Assembly: GCA_021234155.1 (NCBI GenBank)
Contig: JAJEKV010000520.1
Coordinates: 64,001-128,000, forward strand
Reading direction: 5' to 3'
Origin: Isoetes taiwanensis
Lineage: Eukaryota; Streptophyta; Lycopodiopsida; Isoetales; Isoetaceae
DNA length: 64,000 nt
The translations under genes and the position numbers were made by a program. The first letter of the stretch is position 1, and each line of letters starts with the position of its first letter. Below the pieces are notes generated by a model, which had not been told where the DNA came from, searched no databases, and saw only the letters and a program-made list of their open reading frames with translations. This document shows positions 41,786 through 62,727 of this stretch, piece by piece.

Positions 41786-42078
41786 TGAATTGCATGCTAT
41801 CCGCACCTTGGAATGACAGGGCAGAATGCAGCAATGCATGCATGAAAGGTCTTTGTTTTCTTATCGAATCCTTGTTTGACTTGTTTGATCCAGATTGTAT
41901 TTGCTCTATGTTGGCTAAAATTGAAACAACTCGATGTGTTTTAAGTCTTGACAGTGTTTCTTTGACTTGGATAGCTTTGTTGCAGTTTACAGAGAACTCT
42001 AGGTGCATTCGAGTGGACAAAATTACTATCTTTGTGCCCGGTTCAGTTTTTACTTGTGGTTGATTCCTGTAAAAACAG

Positions 42079-42158
42079 GATGAATCTTCATATGTTCGTA
42101 AAACAGCTATGTGTGTTCCAAAGTTGGATGACATTAATGACGAATTGGCTGAAGACAG
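42079..42158 (+). other. Possible internal exon, unknown protein
   Basis: The acceptor AAAAACAG and donor CAG|GTAGGA bound an 80-bp open stretch reading DESSYVRKTAMCVPKLDDIN DELAEDR. It lies about 290 bp after the RNase HII-like piece and in the same orientation, so both may belong to one worn gene. The family is unknown. Confidence 0.3.
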
Positions 42159-42954
42159 GTAGGATTTGATTTCTGACAGCAGTTCAATGGTTGTAGCAAA
42201 TACTGTTGCAGGGATACAGGAAACAAGTAGCAAGTTTGTATTCGAGCAAAAATTATAGTTTATTCAAGCACTTGGCCACATTGAATGTGCACAGAGTACG
42301 ACATCTTTTCATTCTTTGGACATTCTAGGAGAAATGTTTGGCCGTTTGTTTGAAATTGTTGGTTTCAACAAAATTTCAATGAGGTTCGACAAAGTTGCCC
42401 AGTATAGATAGACATCTTAACTTCACATCGTCCCTAAATACAGGAGAAATGTTTGGTCGTTCGTTTAAAGTTGTTGGCTTTAACAAGGTTTCAACAAGGT
42501 TGCCCAGTACAGATGCACTTAACTTTACATGGTCCCTAAATACAATCAACTATGATAAACTTTGTACAATTCTTGGGGAGCCAAAGAAGTACTCAAGAAG
42601 CCTAGTGGAATTCTATTAAAATCATAGGGGATCCTCATAGAAAGGGAATTTAAAGGAAAATATTCATAAGATCTTAAGAAAGCTTTGAAGATCATGATAA
42701 AGCTAATTGGATCTTAATGTGAGGGAATGTTCACATCTCAAATGTCAGGCCTCAAATTTGAATCTTGATGCGTGAGATTTATTTGTTTGTATACCAACAT
42801 ATAGAGTCTAATTGACAAGCTTGAAGAACCTACAAGTGATGGATAAAAAAGATGCCTCTATAATTTCTAGCAATAGTTCTACCCAGCTTTTTCTTTCTTT
42901 TTACAGACAGTGAACATGATTCAGAAGCTATAATTTGTAAGGAAGGAAGGAACT

Positions 42955-43445
42955 TTTAATGTCCACGGAACCCAATCGGGTTATGGGACCACAAGTACAA
43001 AACGGGACCGAAGTCCCTAACCAGAACAAGGATGGCCCAGATTAAAAACCACCTGGGAAAAAACTGTTGCCAGGATGACTACGCATCCAAAAATCCATGC
43101 TATTGCAAGAAGCAATAAGCATACCTCCAACAGACAAGACTTCACCAAACGCCGGAACAGTAACCTCTTCACAACCGGGCCGGGAAAACCGACGCCTAAC
43201 GCCAATCGCCTGCACGCCGCAGGGAAGGGCGGCGCCGAGAAACCGCCAGTGGAAATCGCCTGTCCTGGAGGTGCCTCCTCACTAAAAGCGCCCACCGATC
43301 CGGTGCATGCTCTGCACATACGCCGTGCACGCTCCGCAGTGCAGCAGCGCCACCCATCATCGCACCTCCCAGCGCCATCCATCACTACGCCTGGACAACC
43401 ACAAAGGCCAAAGGCCAGTGCAGCGGCCGAGGGTATATGAGGAAT
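42955..43445. other. GC-rich island of unknown origin
   Basis: Base use changes sharply here: GC-rich with many CG dinucleotides, against AT-rich flanks. Both strands are open (43075-43440 plus, 43017-43487 minus), as expected for GC-rich DNA, and neither shows a known domain. The opening phrase TTTTAATGTCCACGGAACCC does not match other repeats in the window. It may be the 5' part of a retroelement or a captured promoter/first exon. Confidence 0.4.
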
Positions 43446-45474
43446 TGAGGTGGAACAAGCCCTTTGATGAATATAATTGGGATACAAATTTTGGTTTCTT
43501 CATGGTGGAGATTTAGATTCTATGCAAACTTTTCGTTTGAAATAATTGGCTTGAAGTTTCAGATTAATCATGTAGTTGGAAAACAAAATGCATTTGGTAA
43601 TGGAAGGATTTGGCTATAGCTATGGTTGGGCATGAGCAGATTGGCTTCAATTCCTTTCAATAGAAGGGTCCTTCATTTACCAAAGGCGGTGTTTTGGATA
43701 TGTAGCATCCTCCTTGGAATTTTGTTGTAGGCATTGTTTGAAAGCTCAAACAATTGGAGCAAGAGCATCCGAAGTTTAAACTGTGGATGCCTTATGTATT
43801 AGTTGTTTGGTTTGAAAAATGCATGCATTTTTTGGGTGGTTCTTTGAATGAAAAGAAAAACAGTTAAACATTAAACTTTGGTATTAATTGTTTATTTGTG
43901 ACATAGCATGCTCATTATGTTGGCTTCTCTAAACATTTGGAAGGCTCTTGCTTTGCTACTTATTGGAATAAGTGTGAACCAACTCCATGCAACACTTATC
44001 GAACTATAATAATAGTTCCATCGGCATAGGGTGTTCTTGAAAGACAAGAGGCAAGAAACTCCTTGGCTACATCAAGGAGTTTTGTGATTTGAGTTGTGAT
44101 GTTGAGATGTCATGTTTATGGTTATAGCTTCTTTTAGCATAATCTATAGGTCTTGATATTAACCGCATTGCTCGTGAGTAAACAAAAATATTATGTTAAA
44201 ATTGAAGAATGTATCATTGTTTACATCTTAGTGATAAAATGACGTTAAAACATTTTAAGGTGGCCACATTCAAGCCGCCGTTTAATTTTAAGATTTGATC
44301 TCATCCATTGAATAAAAGTCATTGAAATAAATGAGGAAATTAAATGCCGACATGTTCGATGTCTCTCGTTGTTCGGAGGGGACCAAGCCGCAATGGCCGA
44401 AGCTCTACAATCGATTTCTCAAGTTATCTAATGCCGAATTTGTTTCTCGCATCCCGCCCCGCTTCAAGGCCATCTAGGTCCGCTAACATATAATGAAGAT
44501 TGTGTAACATTTGTCTCCAACATATTTCCAACATTTTTGCCCAACATATGTCCAATATATGCCTAACCATTGTCCAACATATATTTGAGATATGCCCAAC
44601 ATATATTAAAGACTTGCAAATGGTCGTTTTGTATTTGCCAAATGCAGTATTCTGTCACAGACAATTCTATGTGGAACTATTGAGAGTTGAAGGAATTTAA
44701 GGCATAAAGGTACTTATTCCATCGAAGGATGGAGACGCTTCCATAGATGTTGGCACATCAAGATATACAGTAAATATTGTCTATAGGGAAATCCTCTAAG
44801 AGTGAGTCTAATACATAGAACGTCTATTTCTTTTTTCTTTTTGTTCTCATTTATTAGATGGCAAACAACACTATGCCCTACGAATTGGCATTTTAGTGGC
44901 CGAGATCTCACCGTGTTGAAATATGCAATGGAGTGGATTTAGAGTCTACAAATTATTGCATTTTGAGGCGGTATTTAATTCGATTATAATGAACCCACTT
45001 TGAGATGAGTTGTCTCACGGTTGTGAGATATCATGCGATTCGGATCAAAGACTCACCGATGCATTTGCTCAACTCAATACACGATAATAGTTTTTTAATA
45101 AATGATAGAAAAAATGACGCTAGTAGTAAAAAAAATGACGCATTAGTGGTAGAAGATAAAGTGCAAGATAGAGGGGCCAAAGAACAACATGCATAAAAAT
45201 CTGATTAGTATAAAACTTTTATAATTTGCAATCTTGTGTTTTTTTTATTTAGATGCTTTGCCCTTTGTTAACAAATACATGGCACACGTTGGGATAACAA
45301 ATATGGTTCAATGAGGGCAATATCTGTCAAATTAACAATGCTTCAACCTTGTTTGGAAACCATTAAATGGGTTGTTTGGAAATAGTTATCTCATTTTGCT
45401 AAAAACTTTTATCATTTCGCCAAATTAGAGTGCAGTATCGATAGGCAATTTATATCTTTGAGAACCTAGAGGAA
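43446..45474. other. Intergenic sequence
   Basis: No gene is recognised. Near 44505-44600 the phrase CCAACATAT or close variants recurs about six times at irregular intervals. A small doubled AAAAATGACGC lies at 45110-45140. Confidence 0.4.
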
Positions 45475-46300
45475 TCTTCATAGAATCTAAGGGTATCCAA
45501 GATAATCTACATAGAATCGTGGAGAATCTAGGTGAATCTTGGGGCAATCTTTTAGGAATCTAGGGGAATCTCGAAAAGGATCTAAGGGAATCAAGGGAAT
45601 CTTCATAGAATATTTGAGCATCTATGGAAATCTTCTTAGGATCTTAGAGAGTCTATGAGAATCTACATAGAATCTTGGGGAATTTATGTGAATCTTTAGA
45701 GAATCTTTAGAGAATCTTTGGGAATCTAGGAGAATCTTGATGGAATCTTGAAGATCCTAAAGGGACTTCATAGGATCTAAAGGAATCTTCACAAAATCTT
45801 TAATAATCGAGGGGAATCTTGATGAAATTTTGGAGAACCTAAAGGAATCTTCATAGAATCTAAGGAAATGGAAGAGTATCTACATAGAATCATGGGGAAT
45901 CTAGGTGAATCTTAAAACAACCTTTTGAAAGCTAGGGGAATCTATGGGAATCTCATGAAAATCTTTGAGAATTTTGGAGAATTCAAAGGAATCTTCATAA
46001 AATCTTTGAGAATATAGGGGAATCTTTACAAAATTTGAATGAATCCTTGAAATTTTGAATGAATTTACATAGAATCTTGGGGAATCTAGAGGCATCTTGG
46101 AATAATTCTCAAAAAATTTAGGGGAATCTTTATAGAATCTTAAGAATCTAGGGAAATCTTTGTGCAATCTTAGAAAATCTAGGAGAAAATCCAAGAGGAT
46201 CTAGCAGAATATTTGACACTAGGTGTGCTTGCAGGGGAATCTTCATAGAATCTAATGAAATCTAGGAGAATCTACCTAGCATCTTGGGCAATCTGGAGGA
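45475..46300 (-). repeat. AGATTC minisatellite array in reverse orientation (GAATCT)
   Basis: This is the reverse complement of the arrays at 1126-1892 and 9620-10285. GAATCT starts follow each other at 10, 10 and 11 bp in the best parts (for example 45475-45545). It ends next to the GGGG-type module of the first 8.2-kb unit, without an AT box between. It is non-coding. Confidence 0.85.
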
Positions 46301-46317
46301 ACCAACATGGTGTAGAG

Positions 46318-46540
46318 ATTGATCTCGGCCGTCCATCTTTGAGATGGACGGCCCGTGACGGCAAGCTACCCACGTAATACCCCAAGCATCCCCCCTTATT
46401 TGGGGCTTTTAACTGGCCCTTGAAATTGGGGCATTTTATCTAGACCATCGATTAACATTTTTGGGGCTTTTCATATGGGTCGTTTCGGATTTGAGCCCCT
46501 TTATTTGGGGCTTTTCATATTGGCCGCCGGATTTGAGGAT
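46318..46540 (-). repeat. GGGGCTTTT module with 12-bp hairpin, copy 5
   Basis: GGCCGTCCATCT (46327-46338), loop TTG, and AGATGGACGGCC (46342-46353) form a perfect 12-bp inverted repeat. It is followed by several TTTGGGGCTTTT phrases. It marks the left edge of the 8.2-kb unit. Confidence 0.7.
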
Positions 46541-47784
46541 AATCTAAACCGCTCGAGCAAGAGCTTTGTTGGTTATGGCGACGACAGGGCCGTCCCGCCG
46601 GTTGTCCCCGGACGTTGGATCCAAACTAGTGAAGGTCGGGCAACCGATTTTCTCGAAAGAAAGAGCCATTTTTCTTTGCATTCTTGGATTTTGGCTTCAA
46701 CTCTACGAATGCCTTTGTGGCAAAATTGAGTTTTGCAAATATTTGGTATGCAAAGGGCTTCCCGCATGCATCTAAATAATCCTCGCCCATTTCGCTCCTC
46801 GAGAGTTTCATTAGAATTCTTCGATGCCTAGATCTCCTAGATCAGGTCGGAATCGCAGTTATTAGCCCAGGAAAGTTGCACCCAAAACCAAGGGCCACCT
46901 TTTGGTTTTGTAAGCAACGGTATTATAGGCAAGAAGCTAGGCTTCTAGATTATTCTCTCGTGGCCTTTTTAATGTATTCCATACGGGAACTACTCATCCG
47001 GCTAGATTATGCATTTCTAAGTAGCATGGGCTTGGTTGTGACACATGAATGGTGCAGATTGTGCGTGTTGCGCCGAATCGAAGCTGTTAAATGTATTTAA
47101 TTGCTTGGCATTTCAAATCAAAATAAGGTATGGTTGTTCTTGGCTAGGTTTTGTTTCTCGAATGAGTTGCAATAACTTGCGTGTTGTGTGTAGATTTTCT
47201 TTGTGTGAAGTAGTGGAGTGCTCTTTCATTTATATACCGCTATCACGATCTAGTGATGAATCCATCAATTAGTGCTTTCCTTTAGGGCCCAAAATTATCA
47301 TCCCAAAGACAGACTTCCCTCTCGCTGCTTGTGCATGCTCATCGATTGTCACCCATGTGTTCAAACTAGAAGCTAAAGCAAATCCTTTGGACCGTGCAAC
47401 TAGAATTGTGAGGTAAAATCTGAAATTGCATGTTACGGTCCAAGTCGCCTAATATAATGTGCAAGCTCTGTCGGTAGGAGCCAAGACTTTATCGAATTTG
47501 GAAACCAAAGATCGGCGATTCGAAAGCATTAACTAATGTCTATCTTTTCATGGCTTCGTAACCAACTCAAAGCTTGTCGTGATTTGATAGCTACAATCAC
47601 ATTTTATGGTAAGAGAAATAATTTGGACTAGCAAAGCAAATATCAAACTTCGCCATAGATGTTCACAATTGCATGCACATTTTCTTTTTTAAGTGCATTT
47701 AAGTTCTTAAGCATCTTTGCATTAGAAATTGAGACCGCATCTCCTTTCAAGGAAAACGATAAGTTCTACTTGCCAGCCAAAAAG

Positions 47785-49180
47785 CAAGCCTGGGATTTAG
47801 AAACATTCCGGTTTATTTGACATGTTTACATAATGAATTTGAAAAATATGCACCTAATGACTTTGGTAGATCATTCTTTGAGCTTTTCAACGATGCTCAT
47901 ATTTGAGAAAGAGTTTGTTTGCTCAAGTTATGGCTCTCTTTCTACATCGCTGTAAAATTAGAACAAGAAATGCATTTTGCCATGTTTGGCCCATTTACGA
48001 GGGAATCTGAAATTTGTGTCCCTAGGAATATTCTTAGGTCTTCCCTTGATCTTTTCAATGGATACTCTTTGCTGTGAAGATAGAGCTTGCATTTGAAAGT
48101 TATGTTAGATTTCTTACAGCCACCAACAAGCTTCAAAATGGTGAAAGGTAAAGTTGCGGCTTTTTCCACAATAATATACTATTGCCATCTTTTGTTGAAT
48201 GATTCAAATTTCCTCCGCTTTTTCAAGCGTGTTATTTGTCCTTTATTTGTTTGTTTTTTGGCGGAGAAAATTTCTCCTTTCCAAGAATGCCACAATCAGT
48301 CCATCCGCACATAGGTGAATGCCTTTTCCATCTCACTATTTGTAGGTTTGTTTGTAATGCTTCCACAAAGTAGCAAATCCTTATATGTAGGCAAGTGAAT
48401 GTACAAAAGAAGCTGATTAATTTGTTGTTTGTTGGAGATGGAATAAGCAAAATGATCATTACGCGAAGCTTTAAGCAGAATGTCCAACAAAGTGGGGTGA
48501 CAAGATTCAACTCAGCCACGAGTAAGTAGCTCACAACCAAGCTTTTTCCAAATTTCAAGCGCAAGATCTCTCCCGACAGTTCCATTTTAGTGACTTTTTT
48601 TTTGGCGCGGTGATATCAGCTTTTGAATTTTTGGGAATGAACTTCTTGTAAAGGTGATATCAGCTTTGAATTTCTTGTGCACCTAGCAATATGTTTAGGT
48701 CTTCCCTTCATCTTTTCAAGGGATACTCTTGTGCAAAGATAGAGTTTGCATTTGAAACTTATGTTTAAGTTCTTATCATGAGCGAAAAAGCAAGCCTTGG
48801 ATTTAGAAACATTCTGGTTTATTTGACATGTTTACATAATGAATTTGAAAAATATGCACCTAACGACTTTGGTAGATCATTCTTTGAGCTTTTCAACGCA
48901 TGCTCATATTTGAGAAACAGAGTTTGTTTGCTCAAGTTATGGCTCTCTTTCTACACTGCTGTAAAATTAGAACAGAAATGCATTTTGCCATGTTTGGCCC
49001 ATTTACAGTAGGAATCTGAAATTTGTGTCCCTAGCAATATTCTTAGGTCTTCCCTTGAACTTTTCAATGGATACTCTTTTGCTGTGAAGATAGAGCTTGC
49101 ATTTGAAAGTTATGTTAGATTTTTACAGCCAGGTCAACAAGCTTCAAAATGGTGAAAGGTAAAGTTGCGGCTTTTCCACA
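47785..49180 (+). repeat. Internal 0.4-kb direct repeat, two copies in unit 1
   Basis: A segment starting AAGCAAGCCTTGGATTTAGA, with CCTAACGACTTTGGTAGATC and AGTTATGTTAGATTT, occurs at about 47785-48150 and 48785-49180. The counterparts in unit 2 are 55975-56370 and 57007-57400. The frame TCLHNEFEKYAPNDFGRSFF is open in three of the four copies, but no family is recognised. Confidence 0.7.
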
Positions 49181-49902
49181 ATAATAGGTACCAGCTAAGA
49201 GTTGCAGTTAAGAGACGATGGTTCAGTTCATAATATGCCAGCAAAGGTAAGCATATTTGGGCCAATGGGTATGTAGTCCTGGCCATGATCCTCTTACTAT
49301 TGCCGCCTTTTGTTGAATGATTCAAATTGCCTCCGCTTTTTTTTTTTTGTCCTTTATTTGTCCTTTATTTGTTTGTTTTTGGCGTGCACACAATCAGTCC
49401 ATCTGCATATAGGTGAATGCCTTTTCCATCTCACTATTTGTAGGTGTATATATTTGTTTAGCGTGTTTGCAACACATGCAAGCAAAGATGATCCGAGCAC
49501 ATGTAAGTGGGCGCACAAGTAATTATTGGATTAGGCAACTATTGTTAAATTTAATCGTGTTATTACATGAAATACAATCATTGAAAGCTATACTACACGC
49601 GGTTAAGGGAATGAAGGGTTTAAATTTCTTTATCATATGAAACTCAAAGGCTTGGTAATTGACAAAGCAAGCTTTTCAACCTCATGGATGCATGAAGATA
49701 CGTGCTCATTATTTCTAAAAATTATAACCATTATAGTTGCTCATTCTTTGTGATGACTACTTGGCTATTTCAAAAATTGTGATCCAATCCAACACAAATG
49801 GTGATGGTGTCTATTTTTCAAAGAATTTGTGATCCAACACAACCAAAAGAATTTCCATGGAAATATGATCAAGGAAGGTCTTGTTGCTTGACTATACAAA
49901 GT

Positions 49903-50040
49903 GGGGGTTTACAAAGATGGAGCTAGCGAGCATGTTTAGTTTGAGACAAAGCGATATTGCAGCTTTTCCCCAAGGGAATGTCTTGCACTTGGGATTGTCT
50001 AGAAGTCGCTAAAAAAATACTACCCAATGCACCCTTAATG
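49903..50040 (+). pseudogene. Cupin_3 (DUF861) C-terminal fragment, unit 1
   Basis: Same fragment as in unit 2, more broken. VYKDGASEHV is followed at once by a stop (TAG where unit 2 has CAG). The stretch equivalent to FPKGMSCTWDCLEVAKK is present in a shifted frame with one more shift near the end. See the unit 2 copy for the family reasoning. Confidence 0.65.
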
Positions 50041-50189
50041 AAAAGCATTCAGGTTTGGCCAAGTAGAGTGTGCATATATTTTGGCCGAGACAAAGGCATC
50101 ACCTTTGCTCACATTTCTTACTGTGTAGAAACTTTTAAAACCAAGTTTGTATTACAAGATCGACATGATTTATTAGGCATGCAAGGTGT

Positions 50190-50905
50190 ATCCATGCATG
50201 GACTATCGCAGATGGTTTAGAATCTGATATCACCTTAGGGAATGGTCTTGTGGATTTATATGCATAGTGTGAGAGCTTGAGGAGGCACAAAGAGTCTTCA
50301 ACAGACCGCCAAATCGTGATATAGTATCATGGAATGCAATGATTGAGGGATATGCCGAAACCAACAAAAGCTGCATCGCCTTTGAATATTATGATGCATT
50401 GCAAATTGAAGGAGCGGAGCCAAGCAAAGTTACGCTTTTAAGTCTCTTGAAGGTGTGTGGCATACCGGGCACCGCAGTAACAAAGCGTACATTCCATGAA
50501 AATATTGTTGAGAGTGAGCTCCAAACCGACGCTGTGGGGAACATCCTTATGTTTATGGTTGTTAAACCGGGCACTTGTGGGAGGCATATAAAGTCTTCAA
50601 TTGTATGCCAAAGCACGACGTAATTTCATGGACAACAATGATTGGAGGATATGGCCGGTTTGGCAGGTCGGGAGTTCCGCAGATTTGTTTGAGGAAATGC
50701 AATATAATGCCATTAAAGGTATGATGTGGCATTTGTTGGCATTCTTAATGATTCAAAGAATGTTGGATTAGTGGAGGAGGGTATGTGGTATTTCGAAGTA
50801 TGAAACAATGGCATGGCATCCAAGTGAATGCAATGCATATGGATTGCATGGTGGATCTTCTTGGTCGTAAGGTGATTCCTTAGAGGCGAAAATTTGTCTG
50901 ATGCT
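50190..50905 (+). pseudogene. PLS-class PPR fragment, unit 1
   Basis: The same PPR motifs as in 58380-59095, but with more shifts. Parts of the reading are WNAMIEGYAETNKSCIAFEY (50332 onwards), FHENIVESELQTDAVGNILM and MEGG-type remnants of the following repeat. At several places where unit 2 has CTG or CAG this copy has CG or CCGG, for example ATACCGGGCACCGCAG against ATACTGGCACTGCAG. Confidence 0.7.
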
Positions 50906-51404
50906 CTTCATAACTAGGTCTAATACCTAGTTTGATGATATGAAAATACTTATGATATAAGTTTGTTTGGAACTTGATCGACATTTCTAGATCTTTTGGA
51001 CATGTATATTGCTCAAAATCAAAGGGCTTTTCAAAACTAAGCCCTAGATGTGCGGTACTTGTGAACGATATTAATGAGAGCTATGTCCAAGAACCGAAGT
51101 TCATTTATATACTATCTACATCTACTTCAAGACTCCTCTTTTCCTTCTAATTCTCAAATTTCATCACGTTTAGTTGGTTTAGTTGGTTTTTGTGGGCTCG
51201 GACCATTGATCTTCTTTTTGGCCTCCGAACCTAATTTAGAATTGCCCGCAAATTAATGCCATTACATTATATCAAGTATTTGAGGGGATCAACTATGCCA
51301 TCATGTTGTTGTAGTTATATTTCGCTCTAGGTTGTTTGTATGCGATTTTAACTTTCGTGTTTTATAGCAAGGGTGCATTATCGATTTTTCGCATCGTTAC
51401 GATG

Positions 51405-51745
51405 CGCCAAGTATGAAGTCGAGTTGGAGAAGAGGACAGCTTTTGAAAGGTGAGTTTTTGCATGCAAGTTCTTCAAAGATTAGGCATAAAAAGCTACAGT
51501 TACATCTAGATTTAGCGCAGAATGGCATATTGTAGCAAACATTGGAATTCAGGCTTGAAGTTCATGCAACGAAAAAGGCTATGTTGCATATGATTATAAT
51601 TCTAATGTGTTATTGTCACAGAGAGCAAGCCAGCTCAAGTTTAAACAAGGCCGTTGCATCTATGAAGAAAGGTGAAACCGCAACCATTTGGATTGCTCGA
51701 ATATATCCTCTTGCCATTGCCCTGTGCATAGTATTTTTTTTGCCT
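51405..51745 (+). pseudogene. FKBP-type isomerase exon fragments, unit 1
   Basis: KYEVELEKRTAFER with donor GTGAG (to about 51450) and LNKAVASMKKGETATIWIA (to about 51690) repeat the two FKBP exons of unit 2. The acceptor of the first exon is lost: where unit 2 has ATGCAG|TCAAG, this copy reads ATGCGCCAAG. The second exon also lacks the CAG|G acceptor seen in unit 2. Confidence 0.6.
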
Positions 51746-53599
51746 TGCAATGTCAAACTTGATCAATTGGTCGAGCTTTTTACTAGATGCATGTGGAATT
51801 GAATTTTAGTTGCAAAGATAATTTTAAATTGTTGCAAAGGCAAACAGATCTAGCAGAGGAGTTATATGGGGATGCATATGTGTCGTGGCAACCGCCAAGC
51901 TCCATGCTTCAAGGCATCTACTCACCGCCTTTGCCATAGCCATTTAAGGCAAAACTTGATATCAAGATTGCTATTCGGATAAAAGGGCAACAAAATCATG
52001 ATACATTCATAGCTCCTCAGATATCCTTTTGAAAAAATTGAATGCAAATAAATGCTTACCAATGCACATGTAAGATCAGATTTGCCAAATTTGCCATCAA
52101 ATATCCCCGGCGCCGAAAAATTAGAGGTGCATCAGCCAATTTTAGCACAAGAATTGAATGTCTACTTTCTTAAACGGAATCGTGGTTTTCAAATTTTTCA
52201 TGGTTCTTGAAACTATTAGCTTAGATATTGCAATACCCAAACGCATGTAGTTATTATTCATTGCAGATCTAAAACTTAAGCGGCACATGCTTCATGCATT
52301 ATGCTCAAAGATGTTGGTTGCATTACTTAGCTAAGATAAATTTCGGGAGGCTCTTGCATGTAACAATGCATCGGGTCAGAGCATTAAGCCAACTTTTCAT
52401 GTCATCCGGGCAGCCTTGGGAATACTAGTTCCTCGGTCTAAGGTGAGAGATATTCTCAATATCAATTTTAACCTCAACATGGAATAAGAATATGAAATTC
52501 ATTTTGTTTATAGATTCAACCACTTCTATGGTCGGCATGTATGATGCGACAGAAGTGCATTTATAGTTTTTTTGAGATCAAATGGTCTTCCGGGTCAGAT
52601 AATACATCCATCATCTCTTCTAACCCGTAATTTAGTGGACTCAATTGAATGGAGAGCAATTTCGGTTGATAATCCGGCTGGCCGTGCACGGGCTTTGAAC
52701 AACATTTTCAACAAAGATTGATCTTATGGGTGGAGATGTGTTTATCATAAAAATGGGGCGAGAGCTGGTTACACAGTCTTGGGCTTCCTATTTGAACCAT
52801 GAAGCTCCTTACCGGAGGGGATGTTTAAACAACATTTCTAAAATCTTTATGTCGACTTATTTTATTTGATATACATGTGGTTGTGCAAGTGTGTTGAGTA
52901 TGCATTTTAATCGTCGTCTTTCCTTGCATTTATGACAAAGATGCTGCAACTCAATATATGTTTAGCATTCATAATGACATGTTCTTGAACTTTAGTTTAT
53001 GATAATCATGAACGAAATAAATCATGTTAAAAACTTGGTTTTTTTAGTGTTCTTTATTAAACACAACCTTTCAATAGATCTGGAATATGAGATTAGAGTA
53101 AGCATAACGGATTTTAACGTGCCATAACTTATGCCCACAACACAAGTCGAGGGCTTATCAAAACATTTGGCAACAAAGATTGAACATGACCGCATAATGA
53201 GTGGTGCAACCGCGGAAGCATTTAATCTCGACACGACAAAGATGCTGCAACTTAATGTATGTTTAGCCTTTGTAATGACAAGTTCTTGAACTTTAGTTTA
53301 TGATAATCATGAAGGAAATGAAGCATATTAAAAGCTTGGGTTTTTCAGTGTTCTTTCAATAAAGTCAATCTTTCAATACATCTGGAATGTGTATTAGCGT
53401 AGGCATAACCCTTTCTAACACGTGCCGTAATTTATGCCCATAACACAAGTCGATGGTGATAAATATAGAGGGAAATTTAAAAAATCCCCCTATGTTCTAT
53501 CTTATTTATCAAAATATCCATGTATTTTACAATATTGTCAAAATGCCCTAAAATGGGCTATGACGCTACGAGAGAAGAGCAAAATGGCTTATTCTTATG

Positions 53600-53930
53600 G
53601 GAAGCTTAACAGAATCTAGGTGAATGGTAATAAAATTTAAGGGAAAGAAATTAAAACGAATGGAGTTGGGAGTTTAACTGTAGTGTTGATTGTGGTTTGA
53701 TCGAAGGTTGACCAAGGTAGAAGAAACCAAGGGAAAACCAAGGGGATCTTAGAGAATCGTTCACAGTCGGTTTGTTTTGCAAGGGAATCTTCATAGAATC
53801 TAAGAGAAACTACGTAGAATCTTGGAGAATCTAGAATCTTGGGAATCTAGAGAAATGTCAAGAGAATCTTAGGGAATCTGTGGGAAGCTCAAGAGAATAT
53901 TTGAAAATCTAGGAGAATCTAATGTTTGCT
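53600..53930 (-). repeat. Short GAATCT array inside unit 1
   Basis: GAATCTAGG-type subunits, in the orientation of 45475-46300, lie here between unrelated sequence. The counterpart in unit 2 (61750-62060) has about 50 bp more of the array. This links the 8.2-kb units to the minisatellite family. Confidence 0.7.
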
Positions 53931-54379
53931 ATGTTTTTTTGTTAATTTGATGCAATCCAAAATGGAATTCGACGAGGGAACAGTCTAACAAAGATATGTA
54001 TCTCCTTTTACTTCTTTGTGAAACTCTGAGGTATTCCTTCTTAATGCCATGCTATTGTGAAGTTTTGCACATACCTCACTTGGGAATGTTCGATACTAGT
54101 CATGTGCACTTCTCAAATAAATTTTTTATTTTTGAAGGAAGAAAGCATCAATATTTTCCCATATAGAGATTGGTTAAAAAAAAATTAAATAAATGTGTGA
54201 GAACATCATAGGATCCCCACACATAATATGAAAAAATTTCGCTTGCACTCTGTTGCTAGACCATAAATTACACTTTTTTAAAATTAAAAGATTAGATTGT
54301 CAAACAATTATATTTTATGACAGAGACTATAAAACTATATGGCAATGTTTTTTACTACAATATTGGGTACTGATCTATT

Positions 54380-54735
54380 TAAGCCTAGATTTTTCTTCCC
54401 CATCTTCATAACCCATAGCTCAAACACCCATTTATAGTACAAATACTTGTATATCCTTATCCTTATCCTTATATATATACAATTATATGGAGGTCTGGAT
54501 CATGGTGTAGAGATTGATCTCGGCCATCCATCTCTGAGATGGACGGCCCAGACCGTGCCACCTCGTAACACCCCAAGCATCCCCCTTATTTGGGGCTTTT
54601 AATCTCGGCCCTTGAAATTGGGGCATTTTATCTAGACCGTCGATTAAAATTATTTGGGGCTTTTCATATGGGTCGTCGGATTTGAGCCCCCTTTATTTGG
54701 GGCTTTTCATATTGGCCGTCGGATTTGAGGATAAT
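54380..54735 (-). repeat. AT box and GGGGCTTTT module at the junction of units 1 and 2, copy 6
   Basis: The dyad TACAA-ATAC-TTGTA lies at 54438-54451, followed by three TCCTTA units and a TA run. A hairpin lies at 54522-54548 (12-bp arms with one mismatch), then TTTGGGGCTTTT phrases. Upstream, ACTGATCTATTTAAGC matches the flank of the box at 28177. Confidence 0.7.
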
Positions 54736-55974
54736 CTAAACTGTTCGAGCAGTAGCTTTGTTGGGTATGGCGACAGAGGCGGCTGTCCTGGACGTTGGAT
54801 CCAAACTAGTGAAGGCTGGCAACCGATTTTCTCAGAAAGAGCCGATTTTTCTTTGCATTCTTGGATTTTGGCTTCAACTCTACGAATGCCTTTATGGCAA
54901 AATTGGAGTTTTGCAAATATTTGGTATGCAAAGGGCTTCTGGCATGCATCTAAATCCGTTTGCCGGAATCCTCCCCGCCCATTTCGTTCCTCAGGAGTTT
55001 CATTAGAATTCTTCTGATGCCTACATCTCCTAGATCAGGTCGGAACTGCAGCTAATAGCAGCTAATAGCCTGTGTTGCACATAAAAACCAAGGGCCAGCC
55101 TTTTGGTTCTGTAAGCAACGGGTATTATAGGCAAGAAGCTAGGCTTCTAGATTATTCTCTCTGTGGCCTTTTTTAATGTATTCCATACTGGGAACTACTC
55201 ATCTGGCTAGATTATGCATTTCTAAGTAGCATGGGCTTGGTTGTGACACATGAATGGTGCAGATTGTGCAGGTTGGCAGCGGAATCGAAAGCACAACAGA
55301 CGAATTGCTTGGCATTTCGAAACCAAAATAAGGTATGGTTGTTCTTGGCTAGGTTTTGTTTCTGAATGAGTTGCAATAACTTGCAGGTTGTGTGTAGATT
55401 TTCTTTGTGTGAAGTAGTGGAGTGCTCTTTCATTTATATACCGTTATCACGATCTAGTGATGAATCCATCAATTAGTGCTTTCCTTTAGGGCCTAAAATT
55501 ATCATCCCAGCGCAGACCCCTCTCTGCTGCTTGTGCATGCTCATCAGTGTCACCGATGTGTTCAAACTAGAAGCTAAGCAAATCCTTTGGACTATGCAAC
55601 TATGAGGTAAAATCTGAAATTGCATGTTAGACATGTCCAAGCTGCCTAATATAATGTGCAAGCCTGTCGGTAGGAGCCAGCACTTTATCGAATTTGGAAA
55701 CCAGCACTGGCGATTCTAAGGATTAACCAATGTCTATCTTTCATGGCTTCGTGTAACCAACTCAAAGCTTGCTGCATTTGATAGCTACAGTCACATTTTA
55801 TGGTAAGAGAAATAATTCGGACTAGCAGTTATCGAAACTTCTGCCATAGATGTTCACAATTGCATGCACATTTTCTTTTTTTAAGTGCATTTAAGTTCTT
55901 AAGCATCTTTGCATTAGAAATTGAGACCGCATCTCCTTTCAAGGAAAACGATAAGTTCTTACTGCCAGCCAAAA

Positions 55975-57400
55975 AGCAAGCCTTGGATTTAGAAACATTC
56001 TGGTTCATTTGACATGTTTACATAATGAATTTGAAAAATATGCACCTAACGACTTTGGTAGATCATTCTTTGAGCTTTTCAACGCATGCTCATATTTGAG
56101 AAACAGAGTTTGTTTGCTCAAGTTATGGCTCTCTTTCTACACTGCTGTAAAATTAGAACAGCAAATGCATTTTGCCATGTTTGGCCCATTTACAGTAGGA
56201 ATCTGAAATTTGTGTCCCTAGCAATATTCTTAGGTCTTCCCTTGATCTTTTCAATGGATACTCTTGCTGTGAAGATAGAGCTTGCATTTGAAAGTTATGT
56301 TAGATTTCTTACAGCCAGTAACCAAGCTTCAAAATGGTGAAAGGTAAAGTTGCGGCTTTTTCCACAATAATAGGTACCAGCTAATCCTCTTACTATTGCC
56401 ATCTTTTGTTGAATGATTCAAATTGCCTCTGGCTTTTTCGCAGGTTATTTGTCATTTATTTGTTTGTTTTTTGGCGTGGAGAAAATTTCTCCTTTCCAAG
56501 AATGCCACAATCAGTCCATCTGCACATAGGTGAATGCCTTTTCCATCTCACTATTTGTAGGTTTGTTTGTAATGTTTCCACAAAGTGGCAAATCCTTATA
56601 TGTAGGCAAGTGAATGTACAAAAGAAGCTGATTAATTTGTTGTTTGTTGGAGATGGAATAGGCAAAATGATCATTACATTGAAGTTTTAAGCAGGAATGT
56701 CCAACAAAGTGGGGTGACAAGATTCAACTCAGCCACGAGTAAGTAGCTCACAACTAAGCTTTTTCCAAGTTTCAAGCGCAAGATCTCTCCTGACAGTTCC
56801 ATTTTAGTGACCTTTTTTTTTGCTTCTGCGGTGATATCAGCTTGGAATTTCTTGGGAATGAACTTCTTGTGCGGTGTTATCAGCTTTGAATTTCTTGTGC
56901 ACCTAGCAATATGTTTAGGTCTTCCCTTCATCTTTCCAAGGGATACTCTTGCTGCAAAGATAGAGTTTGCATTTGAAAGTTATGTTTAAGTTCTTACTGC
57001 CAGCCAGAAAGCAAGCCTTGGATTTAGAAACATTCTGGTTTATTTGACATGTTTACATAATGAATTTGAAAAATATGCACCTAACGACTTTGGTAGATCA
57101 TTATTTGAGCTTTTCAACGCATGCTCATATTTGAGAAACAGAGTTTGTTTGCTCAAGTTATGGCTCTCTTTCTACACTGCTGTAAAATTAGAACAGCAAA
57201 TGCATTTTGCCATGTCTGGCCCATTTACAGTAGGAATCTGAAATTTGTGTCCCTAGCAATATTCTTAGGTCTTCCCTTGATCTTTTCAATGGATACTCTT
57301 GCTGTGAAGATAGAGCTTGCATTTGAAAGTTATGTTAGATTTCTTACAGCCAGTCAACAGGCTTCAAAATGGTGAAAGGTAAAGTTGTGGCTTTTCCACA
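55975..57400 (+). repeat. Internal 0.4-kb direct repeat, two copies in unit 2
   Basis: Copies at about 55975-56370 and 57007-57400 match each other and the unit 1 copies. A stretch with GAATGCCTTTTCCATCTCAC also recurs (56530, 57585, and 48310 and 49415 in unit 1). The nested order shows the 0.4-kb duplication happened before the 8.2-kb duplication. Confidence 0.7.
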
Positions 57401-58049
57401 ATAATAGGTACCAGCTAAGAGTTGCAGTTAAGAGACAGAAGTTCAGTTCATAATATGCCAGCAAGGTAAGCATATTTGGGCCAATGGGTATGTAGTCCTG
57501 GCCATGATCCTCTTACTATTGCCATCGGCGTGGAGAAAATTTCTCCTTTCCAAGAATGCCACAATCAGTCCATCTGCACATCGGTGAATGCCTTTTCCAT
57601 CTCACTATTTGTAGGTGTATATATTTGTTCAGCATGTTTGCAACACATGCAAGCAGCATGATCTGGAGCACATGTAAGTGGCAGACAAGTAATTATTGGA
57701 TTAGGCAACTATTGTTAAATTTACTCTGTGTTATTACATGAAATACAATCATTGAAAGCTATACTACACGCGGTTAAGGGAATGAAGGGTTTAAATTTCT
57801 TTATCATATGAAACTCAAAGGCTTGGTAATTGACAAAGCAAGCTTTCTCAACCTCATGGATGCATGTGCCACACTGTATGCACGTAAGAAGATACGTGCT
57901 CATTATTTCGAAAATTATAACCATTATAGTTGCTCATTCTTTGTGATGATTACTTGGCCATTTCGAAAATTGTGATCCAATCCAACACAGCGGCTGATGG
58001 TGTCTATTTTTTCAGTAAATTTGTGATCCAACACAACCAGTAAATTTCC

Positions 58050-58228
58050 ATGGAAATATGATCAAGGAAGGTCTTGTTGCTTGACTATACAAAGTGGGGG
58101 TTTACAAAGATGGAGCTAGCGAGCATGTTCAGTTTGAGACAGGCGATATTGCAGTTTTCCCCAAGGGAATGTCTTGCACTTGGGATTGTCTAGAAGCTGC
58201 GAAAAAATACTACCCTGTGCACCCTTAA
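58050..58228 (+). pseudogene. Cupin_3 (DUF861, EutQ-like) C-terminal fragment, unit 2
   Basis: From 58091 the frame reads KVGVYKDGASEHVQFETGDI, then AVFPKGMSCTWDCLEAAKKY YPVHP and TAA. This matches the end of small plant cupin_3 proteins: the G-D-hydrophobic-hydrophobic-FPKG-x-x-C-x-W signature and a K-x-Y close to the C-terminus. About 20 bp upstream, FPWKYDQ in another frame is the preceding family motif, separated by a shift. The first half of the protein is not seen. Function in plants is poorly known; the fold is a single beta barrel. Confidence 0.75.
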
Positions 58229-58379
58229 TGAAAAGCATTCAGGTTTGGCCAAGTAGAGTGTGCATATATTTTGGTCGAGACAGTGCATCACCTTTGCTCA
58301 CATTTCTTACAGGTAGAAACTTTTAAAAACCAAGTTTGTACTACAAGATCGGCATGATTTATTAGGCATGCAAGGTGTA

Positions 58380-59095
58380 TCCATGCATGGACTATCGCAG
58401 ATGGTTTAGAATCTGATATCACCTTAGGGAATGGTCTTGTGGATTTATATGCATAGTGTGAGAGCTTGGAGGAGGCTTCAACAGACTGCCAAATCGTGAT
58501 ATAGTATCATGGAATGCAATGATTGAGGGATATGCTGAAACCAACAAAAGCGGCATCGCCTTTGAATATTATGATGCATTGCAAATTGAAGGAGCGGAGC
58601 CAAGCAAAGTTACGTTTTTAAGTCTCTTGAAGGTGTGTGGCATACTGGCACTGCAGAACAAAGCAGACATTCCATGAAAATATTGTTGAGAGTGAGCTCC
58701 AAACTGACGTTGTGGGGAACAGCCTTATGTTTATGTATGTTAAATCTGGGCACTTGTGGGAGGCATATAAAGTCTTCAATTGTATGCCAAAGCACGACGT
58801 AATTTCATGGACAACAATGATTGGAGGATATGGCCAGTTTGGCGAGGCTGGGAGTTCTGCGTATTTGTTTGAGGAAATGCAATATAATGCCATTAAAGCA
58901 GATGATGTAGCATTTGTTGGCATTCTTACTGCATTCAGTAATCCTGGATTAGTGGAGGAGGGTATGTGGTATTTCAGAAGTATGAAACAATGGCATGGCA
59001 TCGAAGTGAATGCAATGCATATGGATTGCATGGTGGATCTTCTTGGTCGTGCAGGATTCCTTAGAGGCAGAAAATTTGCTGTATGCTCTTCATAA
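58380..59095 (+). pseudogene. PLS-class PPR fragment, unit 2
   Basis: At least three PPR motifs of the PLS class, typical of RNA-editing factors: IHAWTIADGLESDITLGNGL VDLYA, then after a stop and shifts WNAMIEGYAETNKSGIAFEY. An open run of 152 codons (58637-59095) follows, with VVGNSLMFMYVKSGHLWEAY, MPKHDVISWTTMIGGYGQFG and MDCMVDLLGRAGFL. A TAG replaces the usual AAG in DLYAKC, and two shifts lie in 58480-58660. No E or DYW domain follows, so it is a fragment. The style is common in seed-free plants. Confidence 0.8.
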
Positions 59096-59603
59096 CTAGG
59101 TCTAATACCTAGTTTGATGATATGAAAATACTTATGATATAAGTTTGCTTGGAACTTGATCGACATTTCCGAGATCTTTTTGGACATGTATATTGCTCAA
59201 ATCAGTAGTCAGTTTTCAAAACTAAGCCCTAGATGTGCGGTACTTGTGAACGATATTCGCTGAGAGCTATGTCCAAGAATTGAAGTTCATTTATATACTA
59301 TCTACATCTACTTCAGTACTCCTCTTTTTCCTTCTAATTCTTAAATTTCATCACGTTTAGTTAATTTAGTTGGTTTTTTGTGGGCTCTGGACGATTGATC
59401 TTCTTTTGGCCTCTGAACCTAATTTAGAATTGCCTACAAATTAATGCCATTACATTATATCGAAGTATTTGAGGGGATCAACTATGCCATCATGCTGTTG
59501 TAGTTATATTTCGTTCTAGGTTGTTTGTACGTTCTATGCTCATTTTAACTCAGGTTTTATAGCAAGGGTGCATTACTGATTTTTCGTTACTGTTACAATG
59601 CAG

Positions 59604-59927
59604 TCAAGTATGAAGCTGAGTTGGAGAAGAGGACAGCTTTTGAAAGGTGAGTTTTTGCATGCAGTTCCTTTAGCATTAGGCATAAAAAGCTACAGTTACA
59701 TCTAGATTTAGCGCAGAATGGCATATTGTAGCAAACATTGGAATTTAGGCTTGAAGTTCATGCACGAAAAGGCTATGTTGCATATGATTATAATTCTAAT
59801 GCAGGTTATTGTCACAGAGCAAGCCAGCTCAAGTTTAAACAAGGCCGTTGCATCTATGAAGAAAGGTGAAACCGCAACCATTTGGATTGCTCCGGAATAT
59901 ATCCTCTTGCCATTGCCCCAGGCATAG
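59604..59927 (+). pseudogene. FKBP-type peptidyl-prolyl isomerase exon fragments, unit 2
   Basis: Exon 59604-59646 lies between acceptor ATGCAG and donor GTGAG and reads KYEAELEKRTAFER, close to the VKYEAKLEDGTVFE strand of the third FKBP domain of plant ROF-type proteins. A second exon from 59805 (after ATGCAG) reads LNKAVASMKKGETATIWIAP EY, the family's GLDKAVxTMKKGE...PPEY segment, and ends at a stop at 59927. The intervening exon coding for about 12 residues and the TPR part are not found. Confidence 0.7.
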
Positions 59928-61082
59928 TATTTTTTTTTGCCTTGCAATGTCAAACTTGATCAATTGGCTGAGCTTTACTAGATGCATGTGGAATTGAATT
60001 CTTAGTTGCAGCATAATTTTGAATTGTTGCAAAGGCAACAGATCTAGCAGAGGAGTTATATGGGGATGCATATGTGTAAGGGCAACTGCTCAAGCTCCAT
60101 GCTTCAAGGCATCTACTCACTGTCTTTGCCATAGCCATTTAAGGCAAAACTTGATATCAGTATTGTTATTCAGATAAAAGGGCAACAAAATCATGATACA
60201 TTCATAGCTCCCTGTATATCCTTTTGGAAAAAATTGAATGCCCTGTATTTGCCAAATTTGCCATCAAATATCCTGGCGCTTGAAAATTAGAGGTGCATCA
60301 GACCAATTTTTAGCACAAGAATTGAATGTCTACTTTGCAGCAGAACTCAGGGTTTTCAAATTTTTCATGGTTCTTGAAACTATTAGCTTAGATATTGCAA
60401 TACCCAAACGCATGTAGTTATTAATCATTGCAGATCGAAACTTAATTGGCACATGCTTCATGCAGATTATGCTCAGTATGTTGGTTGCATTACTTAGCGG
60501 TATAAATTTCGGGCTCTTGCATATAACAATGCATCTGCTGTAGCATTAAGCCAACTGTTCATGTCATCCCGCAGTCTTGGGAATTCTAGTTCCTGGTCTA
60601 AGGTAAGAGATATTCTCAATATCAATTTTAACCTCGACATGGAATAAGAATATGAAATTCATTTTGTTTGCGGATTCAACCACTTCTATGGCTGGCATCT
60701 ACGATGCGGACAGGAAGTGCATTTATAGGTTTTTTGAGATCAAATGGTCTTCTGGCTGTATAATACATCCATCATCTCTTCTAACTCCTGTAATTTAGTG
60801 GACTCAATTGAATGGAGAGCAATTTTGGTTGATACTGGTGCTGGCAAGGCATTAGTTTCTTTGAACAACATTTTCAACAGTATTGATCTTATGGGTGGAG
60901 ATGTGTTTATCATAAAAGCTGGTTACACAGTCTTGGGCTTCCTATTTGAACCATGAAGCTCCTTACCGGAGGGCATGTTTAAACAACATTTCTAAAATCT
61001 TTATGTCAGACTTATTTTATTTGATATACATGTGGTTGTGCAAGTGTGTTGAGTATGCATTTTAATCTTTCCTTGCATTTAT

Positions 61083-61600
61083 GACAAAGATGCTGCAACT
61101 CAATATATGTTTAGCATTCATAATGACATGTTCTTGAACTTTAGTTTATGATAATCATGAACGAAATAAATCATATTAAAAACTTGGTTTTTTTGGTGTT
61201 CTTTATTAAACACAACCTTTCAATAGATCTCGAATATGAGATTACAGTAAGCATAACGGATTTTAACGTGCCATAACTTATGCCCACAACATAAGTTGAG
61301 GGCGATCAAAACATTTGGCAGCAAGATTGAACATGACCGCATAATGAGTGGTGCAACTGTGAAGCATTTAATACTGACACGACAAAGATGCTGCAACTTA
61401 ATGTATGTTTAGCCTTTGTAATGACAAGTTCTTGAACTTTAGTTTATGATAATCATGAAGGAAATGAATCATATTAAAAGCTTGGGTTTTTCAGTGTTCT
61501 TTCAATAAAGTCAATCTTTCAATACATCTGGAATGTGTATTAGCGTAGGCATAACCCTTTCTAACACGTGCCGTAATTTATGCCCATAACACAAGTCGAT
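61083..61600 (+). repeat. 0.3-kb tandem repeat near the unit end
   Basis: GACAAAGATGCTGCAACT begins at 61083 and again at 61381. The two copies share CTTTAGTTTATGATAATCAT and end in an AATATAGAGGG stretch. Unit 1 has the same pair at 52934 and 53235. It is non-coding. Confidence 0.7.
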
Positions 61601-61749
61601 GGTGATAAATATAGAGGGAAATTTAAAAAATCCCGATATGTTCTATCTTATTTATCAAAATATCCATGTATTTTACAATATTGTCAAAATGCCCTAAAAT
61701 GGGCTATGAAGCTATGAGAGAAGAGCAAAATGGCTTATTCTTATGGGAA

Positions 61750-62060
61750 GCTTAACAGAATCTAGGTGAATGGTAATAAAATTTAAGGGAAAGTGTGGTT
61801 TGATCGAAGGTTGACCAAGGTAGAAGAAACCAAGGGAAAACCAAGGGGATCTTAGAGAATCGTTCACAGTCGGTTTGTTTTGCAAGGGAATCTTCATAGA
61901 ATCTAAGAGAAACTACGTAGAATCTTGGAGAATCTAGAATCTTGAGAATCTAGGGAAATGTCAAGAGAATCTTAGGGAATCTGTGGGAAGCTCAAGAATA
62001 TTTGAAAATCTAGGAGAATCTAAGGGAATCTTTATGGAAATCTAGGGGAATCTTTGGGAA
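61750..62060 (-). repeat. Short GAATCT array inside unit 2
   Basis: Subunits such as GAATCTAGGA and GAATCTTTAT lie at 10- to 11-bp spacing. Compared with unit 1 there is an added block near 62010-62060, while the stretch near 61790 lacks about 50 bp present in unit 1. Confidence 0.7.
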
Positions 62061-62727
62061 TAGTTTATTTATTGTTTGCTATGTTTTTTTGTTAATTTGA
62101 TGCAATCCAAAATGGAATTCGACGAGGGAACAGTCTAACAAAGATATGTATCTCCTTTTACTTCTTTGTGAAACTCTGAGGTATTCCTTCTTAATGCCAT
62201 GCTATTGTGAAGTTTTGCACATACCTCACTTGGGAACATTCGATACTAGTCATGTGCACTTCTGAAATAAATTTTTTATTTTTGAAGGAAGAAAGCATCA
62301 ATATTTTCCCATATAGAGATTGGTTAAAAAAAAATTAAATAAATGTGTGAGAACATCATAGGATCCCCACACATAATATGAAAAAATTTCGCTTGCACTC
62401 TGTTGCTAGACCATAAATTACACTTTTTTAAAATTAAAAGATTAGATTGTCAAACAATTATATTTTATGACAGAGACTATAAAACTATATGGCAATGTTT
62501 TTTACTACAATATTGGGTACTCATCTATTTAAGCCTAGATTTTTCTTCCCCATCTTCATAACCCATAGCTCAAACACCCATTTATAGTACAAATACTTGT
62601 ATATATATATATCTGAATATATATATAATTATTAGGAGTGGCTTCGGAAGGTTTTTTTTATATCTATACCGCCGGATCTCGGTAGTCCATTTGCTCCCAC
62701 GCGACCTCGACCGCCGGATATGGTGGC

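What the first reader, a model, noticed from the sequence alone, without database searches (positions are those of the whole stretch)
46305..62600. Tandem 8.2-kb element that carries pieces of at least three unrelated host genes
Each unit contains a cupin_3 C-terminus, a PLS PPR segment and FKBP exons with their splice borders, plus a 0.4-kb internal duplication and non-coding repeat modules at the edges. Unrelated gene pieces side by side in one repeated block is the mark of gene-fragment capture. The unit edges coincide with the GGGG-type module and the AT box, which also occur elsewhere in the window without cargo. This may be a capturing, non-autonomous element family of undescribed type.
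Basis: partly seen in the sequence, partly recalled or inferred. Interest (0 to 1): 0.8.

Follow-up and report, generated by a model that had tools for sequence, protein, structure and literature searches.

The report
Gene-fragment-carrying Helitrons inserted end to end
The repeated 8.2-kb block is two copies of what is most likely a rolling-circle jumping gene (a Helitron) that carries pieces of three plant genes; they landed next to each other separately, and relatives with the same ends and a replication enzyme occur elsewhere in this quillwort genome, so the gene capture is a known phenomenon with unusual ends and an unusual taste for TA repeats.

Summary
The block is real: unit A about 46301-54449, unit B 54454-62599, about 91% identical. 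Near-full copies lie elsewhere. A and B are not a tandem duplication: B shares a structural change and a supported clade with copies on other contigs; A groups with another. They are two insertions placed head to tail.

Edges: 5' A|TC...TATACAATTAT plus the GGGG module; 3' ...ATAGTACAAAxACTTG|T, usually inside (TA)n. Elements with the same 3' end carry other cargo, including an in-frame SHMT-ArgRS chimera. RepHel transposase frames lie within such ends: two 12-kb loci have both ends, a third has Helitron_like_N and PIF1 behind the 5' module. So this is a non-autonomous, gene-capturing, non-canonical Helitron (CTTG instead of CTRR, no clear 3' hairpin, (TA)n sites), not a new transposon type.

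PPR and FKBP pieces are confirmed; the FKBP piece matches an FKBP-TPR locus across an intron. "Cupin" is not supported: that piece matches a 304-aa ORF without a Pfam match.

The parts
46301..54449 (+). Unit A: non-autonomous Helitron copy, 5'-truncated by about 30 bases, 3' end CTTG at 54446-54449
54454..62599 (+). Unit B: non-autonomous Helitron copy, 5' TC at 54454 behind TATA, 3' end CTTG at 62596-62599
46306..46545 (+). 5' terminal GGGG module of unit A (45 rows listed, 40 of 898 candidates scored)
54454..54740 (+). 5' end of unit B: TCCTTATCCTTATCCTTATATATATACAATTATATGG plus GGGG module
54450..54453 (+). TATA between the 3' end of A and the 5' end of B (head-to-tail junction)
47775..48176 (+). 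0.4-kb internal duplication, first copy in A
48781..49186 (+). 0.4-kb internal duplication, second copy in A
50273..50623 (+). PPR fragment in A (one open stretch; the longer match is broken by stops)
   Evidence: PPR_2 1.4e-07
58462..59095 (+). PPR fragment in B (two overlapping frames)
   Evidence: PPR 2.4e-14 and PPR_2 2e-09; no match outside element copies above 51% identity among the 150 scored of 12,285 candidates
51132..52138 (+). FKBP-derived segment in A, with the same outer edges in two other loci (C957, C919)
59316..59979 (+). FKBP-derived segment in B (part matched by C1049; 59526-59900 aligns to the multi-exon FKBP-TPR locus C912, 326 of 460 columns)
52210..52817 (+).
   Evidence: no Pfam match
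60377..60971 (+). Third gene fragment in B
53743..53921 (+). AGAATCT minisatellite, 3' subterminal in A
61846..62061 (+). AGAATCT minisatellite, 3' subterminal in B
54180..54449 (+). Conserved 3' end of A (40 rows listed, 40 of 271 candidates scored)
62330..62599 (+). Conserved 3' end of B
   Evidence: row C242:126330-126602
28191..46300 (+). Probable upstream element of the same family: 5' end at 28191, repeated PPR-bearing unit 29120-37664, minisatellite 45454-46300; no 3' end at the junction with A (extent inferred)
10848..18857 (-). Helitron: RepHel N-terminal frame 16983-18857 and RPA-like frames 12469-11953; CTTG at 10848-10851 as possible 3' end (not secure: 11675-10886 belongs to a repeat found without RepHel at other places); 5' end not found
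9563..10847 (-). Short minisatellite-bearing element that starts TCATAATATATA directly behind a CTTG
1081..3125 (-). Related copy of the short element; homology to the previous one starts exactly at TC

Best explanation
Units A and B are two copies of one non-autonomous Helitron that carries fragments of a PPR gene, an FKBP-TPR gene and a third gene without a known domain. A RepHel protein encoded by related elements with the same ends would nick at the 5' TC, peel off a strand to the 3' CTTG and insert it between A and T, most often inside a (TA)n repeat. Host DNA was taken up at the DNA level, and the chimeric unit was then copied to many places. Each copy has TA-rich ends, so later copies insert at the ends of earlier ones, which gives the chains seen here. 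Shown: copies, cargo, ends, (TA)n flanks, RepHel within such ends at two loci and behind the 5' end at others, separate ancestry of A and B. Inferred: rolling-circle mechanism, use of RepHel in trans, intron content of the FKBP piece, mode and order of capture.
For: Dispersed copies with the same cargo order. Same 3' ends with different cargo: of six upstream stretches fetched, one holds SHMT (8.9e-09) and ArgRS (1.7e-27) in one frame and one an ABC transporter piece (1.1e-07). C1037: GGGG 5' module 2.6 kb upstream, on the same strand, of frames with Helitron_like_N (3.1e-32) and PIF1 (1.5e-50). Of ten other RepHel loci, chosen by long open frame or N-terminal match, the sense strand within 4.3 kb upstream holds the GAGATTGATCTCGGCC motif at <=4 edits in 5 (antisense in 1); by eye two more (L076, L083) have the 5' end. 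Of three with downstream DNA fetched, two have the 3' end, so that C1030 (1,569-codon frame) and C1060 (1,491) have both ends about 12.3 kb apart. T follows CTTG in 20 of 20 right ends of one set (17 TA, 14 TATATA) and in 18 of 18 further exact motif matches in the fetched DNA and window (18 TA, 15 TATATA). Eight of nine other copies of the repeat left of the C1037 element run uninterrupted through its (TA)n. B is nearer to C1025 (98.3%) and C1108 (97.9%) than to A (95.5%), and an 84-bp stretch of A is replaced by ~36 unaligned bases in B, C1025 and C1087.
Against: The 3' end is CTTG, not CTRR, and six tested 3' ends (five distinct, one cut six bases short) show no hairpin better than shuffled DNA. 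No site with both flanks matched to an empty site was obtained: the attempt at C941/C1091 failed on the left flank. Of the ten RepHel loci, L078, L080 and L084 lack the 5' module, and L079, L081 and L082 have the module without the TATACAATTAT start (L082's lies inside other RepHel-like sequence, by eye); one of three lacks the 3' end. The C1037 element's 3' end was not found in about 18 kb. The query behind the 20 right ends ran three bases past CTTG, so the T/TA count is partly selected; one search's motif stops at CTTG, but many of its loci also come from element searches. The 5' base is uncertain in TA-rich DNA: by eye 14 of 20 left ends show A|TC, six do not. (TA)n might partly result from Helitron activity: maize HelA2 excision leaves TA repeats (PMC10095026, passages). 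Transposition was not observed.
Confidence: 0.84

Rival explanations
1. A TIR transposon that targets (TA)n microsatellites (Mutator-like, as MuTAnT or Micron) captured the gene pieces (a Pack-MULE), and Helitrons merely lie nearby.
For: Insertion in (TA)n in both orientations; short inverted match at the two ends (TATATACAA); MuTAnT in Medicago shows this targeting by a MULE (passages read); RepHel loci without these ends exist.
Against: RepHel frames lie within both ends at C1030 and C1060 and behind the full 5' end on the sense strand at C1037, C1026 and C1052. The right flank is T in 20 of 20 but TA in only 17 of 20, so a TA duplication is not kept. The inverted match is only about nine bases, mostly the TA target.
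Confidence: 0.08
2. A plain local tandem duplication of a degenerate gene cluster.
For: Two direct copies with only TATA between them.
Against: Copies elsewhere; A and B fall in different subclades.
Confidence: 0.02
3. A and B were laid down together as one rolling-circle concatemer.
For: Head-to-tail order; tandem repeats by rolling-circle replication have been postulated for bat Helitrons (passages of PMC2267711).
Against: A concatemer predicts A and B as nearest relatives; they are not (95.5% against 98.3% for B-C1025). Unit A's probable assembly errors inflate its distance, but would not make B share a structural change with C1025 and C1087.
Confidence: 0.05

Closest known systems
Maize gene-capturing non-autonomous Helitrons (e.g. 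PMC2575219, PMC2267711)
   Same: Several gene fragments between fixed ends, adjacent head-to-tail copies explained by consecutive insertion (passages of PMC2267711 read; PMC2575219 seen as listing and abstract start only)
   Different: Ends here are CTTG without a clear 3' hairpin instead of CTRR with hairpin; (TA)n flanks dominate; both neighbours here carry the same cargo; host is a lycophyte
Mothra and its RPA-bearing sister family, rice (PMC4683698)
   Same: Non-autonomous and RepHel elements linked by their ends, repeat arrays inside, RPA-like gene (passages read)
   Different: Mothra ends in CTAG with a 16-bp hairpin; its Helitron RPA was said to occur only in monocots and dicots, whereas RPA-like frames follow RepHel here in a lycophyte
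Non-canonical Helitrons of Fusarium oxysporum (Helitron2 type, PMC5148889)
   Same: RepHel elements without CTRR, inverted sequence at the two ends (passages read)
   Different: Different end sequences (ATTTT, CTCCTGT) and insertion sites; phylogenetic placement not tested here
MuTAnT, Micron, TAFT (PMC4486113)
   Same: Insertion into (TA)n microsatellites (passages read)
   Different: MuTAnT is a Mutator-like element with long TIRs and a mudrA-like transposase; Micron and TAFT are known to me here only through that paper's passages

Membership tests
Helitron (order) | Autonomous members encode RepHel (Rep plus PIF1-like helicase) | tested here: met
   C1037 frames behind the 5' module: Helitron_like_N 3.1e-32, PIF1 1.5e-50; RepHel-matching frames of 1,569 and 1,491 codons within both ends at C1030 and C1060. 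Pfam was run on the C1037 frames, not on C1030 or C1060
Helitron (order) | 5' end TC with host A before it | tested here: inconclusive
   By eye 14 of 20 left ends show A|TC; six do not; two short copies share homology from TC on; the border is ambiguous in TA-rich DNA
Helitron (order) | Insertion between A and T without target-site duplication | tested here: inconclusive
   T follows in 20 of 20 and 18 of 18 right ends, with the selection named under evidence against; left flank of C1037 matches an interrupted (TA)n; no site with both flanks was obtained
Canonical Helitron1 | 3' CTRR | tested here: not met
   CTTG in 19 of 20 right ends, ATTG in one
Canonical Helitron1 | Hairpin 10-12 bases before the 3' end | tested here: not met
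   Six 60-base ends (five distinct) fold no better than shuffles, z from -0.87 to +1.08; one was cut six bases short; one (L086) has a 5-bp GC stem about 38 bases upstream
Mutator-like / TIR transposon | TIRs with a target-site duplication of fixed length | tested here: not met
   Only ~9 inverted bases that include the TA target; right flank TA in 17 of 20 only; longer duplications inside (TA)n cannot be excluded without two-flank empty sites
Mutator-like / TIR transposon | DDE transposase within the ends | not tested
   No genome-wide family search for MULE transposases was run
Helitron2 / Helentron | Phylogenetic placement of RepHel, asymmetric TIRs, endonuclease domain | not tested
   No reference RepHel sequences were at hand

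The most novel reading that the evidence does not exclude
In Isoetes a Helitron lineage with altered ends (CTTG, no hairpin) has come to target (TA)n and the TA-rich ends of its own copies; it builds long head-to-tail chains and has been a main engine of exon shuffling, largely unseen because the published repeat library dropped repeats that resemble plant proteins. Its RepHel is accompanied by an RPA-like gene in a lycophyte, which would move the origin of Helitron RPA far before the flowering plants or require a second gain.
Probability: 0.4. Interest if true: 0.62.

Novelty: new variant of a known kind. Interest (0 to 1): 0.42.

Why it matters
It gives a lycophyte case of Helitron gene capture with a candidate autonomous partner, and suggests that finders that rely on CTRR plus a hairpin could miss this lineage. 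The Isoetes taiwanensis genome paper removed repeats with plant-protein similarity from its repeat library and does not contain the word Helitron in its main text (passages and word count; supplements not seen), so captured fragments may sit among its gene models, PPR genes above all (inference).

Tried and rejected
Tandem duplication was rejected by copy ancestry. A TIR or MULE reading was considered first because of the (TA)n sites and the short inverted match at the ends; it was set aside when RepHel frames were found within such ends. For the Helitron in the window (frame 16983-18857) the 3' end stays open: C1063 and C1084 copies match down to 11619 and 11533, a different repeat covers 11675-10886, and the CTTG at 10848 recurs as ATATAACAAACCACTTG|TATATA in the C1084 stretch. 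Both-flank empty site for the C941 element: right flank found twice in C1091, left flank did not match. Search for a close PPR donor: nothing outside element copies above 51% identity among 150 scored of 12,285 candidates. The FKBP-like loci C957, C919 and C188 share long flanks with each other and look like another repeat rather than the parent gene. Rfam at gathering threshold found nothing in the window. A PDB search with the third gene gave nothing useful. iqtree2 printed no tree; supports are FastTree local values on alignment columns 1050-6440. The chance control for the 5' motif upstream of RepHel is only the opposite strand (5 against 1 of 10).
Full report
Source. The window is G000:C242:64001-128000 of a 1,658,258,908-base assembly in 1,110 contigs. 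The Isoetes taiwanensis paper gives 1,658.30 Mb in 204 scaffolds plus 909 contigs from Nanopore, Illumina and Bionano data (PMC8566536, passages). I take the genome to be that species; the fit of size is the only basis.

Observation. A self-comparison shows two direct copies, 46306-49304 with 54501-57523 and 49389-54492 with 57560-62638, at 91.0 and 90.6% identity. The internal duplication is there (47775-48176 and 48781-49186, 94.9%). PPR repeats are clear. The FKBP piece is weak by Pfam on its own (E 0.0075 for typed exons, 0.044 for a single frame, both below the curated cut-off), but it aligns to C912 over 460 columns with 326 identities; C912 reads by eye as a multi-exon FKBP-TPR locus, and a related frame without that intron at C1062 (262 aa) matches FKBP_C at 8.9e-18 with TPR repeats. 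That the aligned stretch spans an intron is inferred from the C1062 frame. The 'cupin' is not supported: the unit-B frame there has no Pfam match at E<=10, and the DNA matches a 304-aa ORF at C1050 (85-93% in three blocks with gaps) that has no Pfam match at E<=1. Not every frame of the units was scanned.

Edges. I took the left module to the genome (45 rows, 40 of 898 candidates scored) and the right end likewise (40 rows, 40 of 271 scored), then read flanks of 20 left rows and of 20 right rows, besides the ends of the near-full copies. Right ends stop at ATAGTACAAAxACTTG; the next base is T in 20 of 20, TA in 17, TATATA in 14. The query ran three bases past CTTG, so this is partly selected; with a motif that stops at CTTG, the other fetched DNA and the window give 18 of 18 T, 18 TA, 15 TATATA after removal of identical rows. 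Left ends carry TATACAATTAT before the GGGG module; by eye 14 of 20 begin with A|TC (TCCTTAT or TCACTC types), three follow another element's CTTG without that start (L022, L031, L039), one is only (TA)n (L034) and two are truncated (L023, L035). Neighbouring elements also lie head to head (L034, L038, L040) and tail to tail (L053). Two short elements on the minus strand of the window, with different left neighbours, share homology from exactly TC on (10847 and 3125).

Cargo differs between elements with the same 3' end. Of six 9-kb stretches upstream of diverged 3' ends, one (L063) has SHMT and ArgRS joined in one open frame (8.9e-09 and 1.7e-27), one (L066) an ABC transporter piece (1.1e-07), and one (L065) a PAN-like piece just below its cut-off (1.2e-05, 25.7 of 27 bits). 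In the other three I identified no cargo by Pfam: no L061 frame was scanned, one L062 frame gave only a weak integrase-core match (0.038), and one L064 frame, which by eye resembles the SHMT-ArgRS copy, gave nothing significant. Only in L063 and L066 was a 5' end also seen within the stretch, so for L065 the piece may lie outside the element.

Transposase. RepHel frames are common in the genome: 93 rows from 71 scored of 2,657 candidates for the window's own RepHel frame, 12 loci with open frames of at least 1,400 codons and no stop in the match. One RepHel locus, C1037, has the GGGG 5' end 2.6 kb upstream on the same strand, with Helitron_like_N 3.1e-32 and PIF1 1.5e-50; it was found by comparing two hit lists, so it is a chosen case. 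For ten more RepHel loci I fetched 4.3 kb upstream: the GAGATTGATCTCGGCCGTCC motif at <=4 edits is on the sense strand in five (L075, L077, L079, L081, L082) and on the antisense strand in one (L076). By eye the full start with TATACAATTA is in L075, L077 and L083 and nearly so in L076; L079, L081 and L082 have the module without it, and L082's lies inside other RepHel-like sequence; L078, L080 and L084 have neither. Of three downstream stretches two have the 3' end (L085, L086), one not (L087). So C1030 and C1060 have both ends about 12.3 kb apart around frames of 1,569 and 1,491 codons. A locus at C1028 had RepHel on the opposite strand of a GGGG module and counts neither way.

Insertion sites. 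The repeat to the left of the C1037 element has many copies (40 rows, 40 of 395 scored); of nine fetched, eight run on through the (TA)n without interruption and one carries another insertion there. So a TA run was there before. The right side of the C1037 element was not found, and the attempt at a two-flank empty site at C941/C1091 failed. Maize HelA2 is reported to leave TA repeats on excision (PMC10095026, passages), so some TA may stem from the elements themselves.

A and B. Substitution-only identity is 95.5% for A-B, 98.3% for B-C1025, 97.9% for B-C1108, 96.7% for A-C1037 (eight copies compared: A, B, C1108, C1025, C1045, C1093, C1037 and C1087; other copies seen, such as C56, C1058, C899, C1039 and C168, were left out). 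FastTree puts B with C1025 and C1087 (1.000) and A with C1045 (0.983); an 84-bp stretch of A is absent in B, C1025 and C1087 only, where about 36 unaligned bases stand instead. So the two neighbours are separate insertions. A has many short gaps at CAG/CTG, which I read as uncorrected base-calling errors at methylated CHG sites; that reading is inference.

What it works like and what it is. It works like a Helitron that captures genes: the replicase of relatives, cargo at the DNA level, A|T insertion. By the strict canonical definition (CTRR, hairpin; passages in PMC5148889 and PMC4683698) it fails two tests: CTTG in 19 of 20 ends and no hairpin better than shuffles in six ends, five of them distinct. 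I therefore call it a non-canonical Helitron lineage. Two Helitrons inserted one behind the other are described for maize (PMC2267711, passages), and (TA)n targeting for other transposons (PMC4486113, passages); the latter's reference list also names a Helitron-like family that disrupts (GAAA)n in moths. My searches for Helitron with Isoetes, with Selaginella and gene capture, with CTRR, microsatellite and TA repeats, with RPA and lycophyte and with fern, lycophyte and captured listed no paper on this lineage among the titles and abstract starts shown (listings were capped at 12 to 15 rows where more papers matched); the Isoetes sinensis genome paper (listed) was not read, and most subscription journals are not held.

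Noticed in passing
window 11953-12469 and 12855-13139 (-); L087:1801-2142: RPA-like frames lie downstream of RepHel in Isoetes Helitrons (Rep_fac-A_C 1.9e-10 and 8.8e-07 in the window; 7.7e-06, below cut-off, in L087; 12855-13139 only REPA_OB_2 0.026); the pair from two loci is 43% identical over 69 aa. Passages of PMC4683698 say that Helitron RPA occurs only in monocots and dicots.
   Followed up: partly
L063:1592-2293 (-): One open frame joins a serine hydroxymethyltransferase piece to an arginyl-tRNA synthetase piece inside an element of this family.
   Followed up: partly
window 29120-37664 (+): A PPR-bearing unit, 2.3-2.8 kb, repeated three times plus a part copy, 94-97% identical, inside what looks like the next upstream element.
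   Followed up: no
window 46301: Unit A starts without its first ~30 bases and is fused directly to the minisatellite of the upstream element, so two ends are missing at one junction.
   Followed up: no
unit A, 46306-54492: Excess of 1-2-base gaps at CAG/CTG relative to other copies, probably assembly errors at methylated CHG sites.
   Followed up: partly
window 1-10850 (-): A chain of elements of this superfamily head to tail on the minus strand (5' ends near 10847, 9540, 3125 and 1063; 3' ends at 10848, 9563, 3136 and 1081), behind a Helitron.
   Followed up: partly
45454-46300, 53743-53921, 1130-2565 and 9620-10264: The AGAATCT minisatellite is 3' subterminal in the units and also lies near some RepHel loci; its role is unknown. 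From memory, VANDAL transposons carry arrays of short motifs bound by their anti-silencing protein, which could be an analogue.
   Followed up: no
L092 (C5:227850-228420); also right flanks in L008, L067, L085: TATACAAGAAATTTAAxxCGTCC beside (TA)n looks like the reverse complement of another Helitron 3' end (AAATTTCTTG|TATA), a further subfamily with CTTG (by eye).
   Followed up: no
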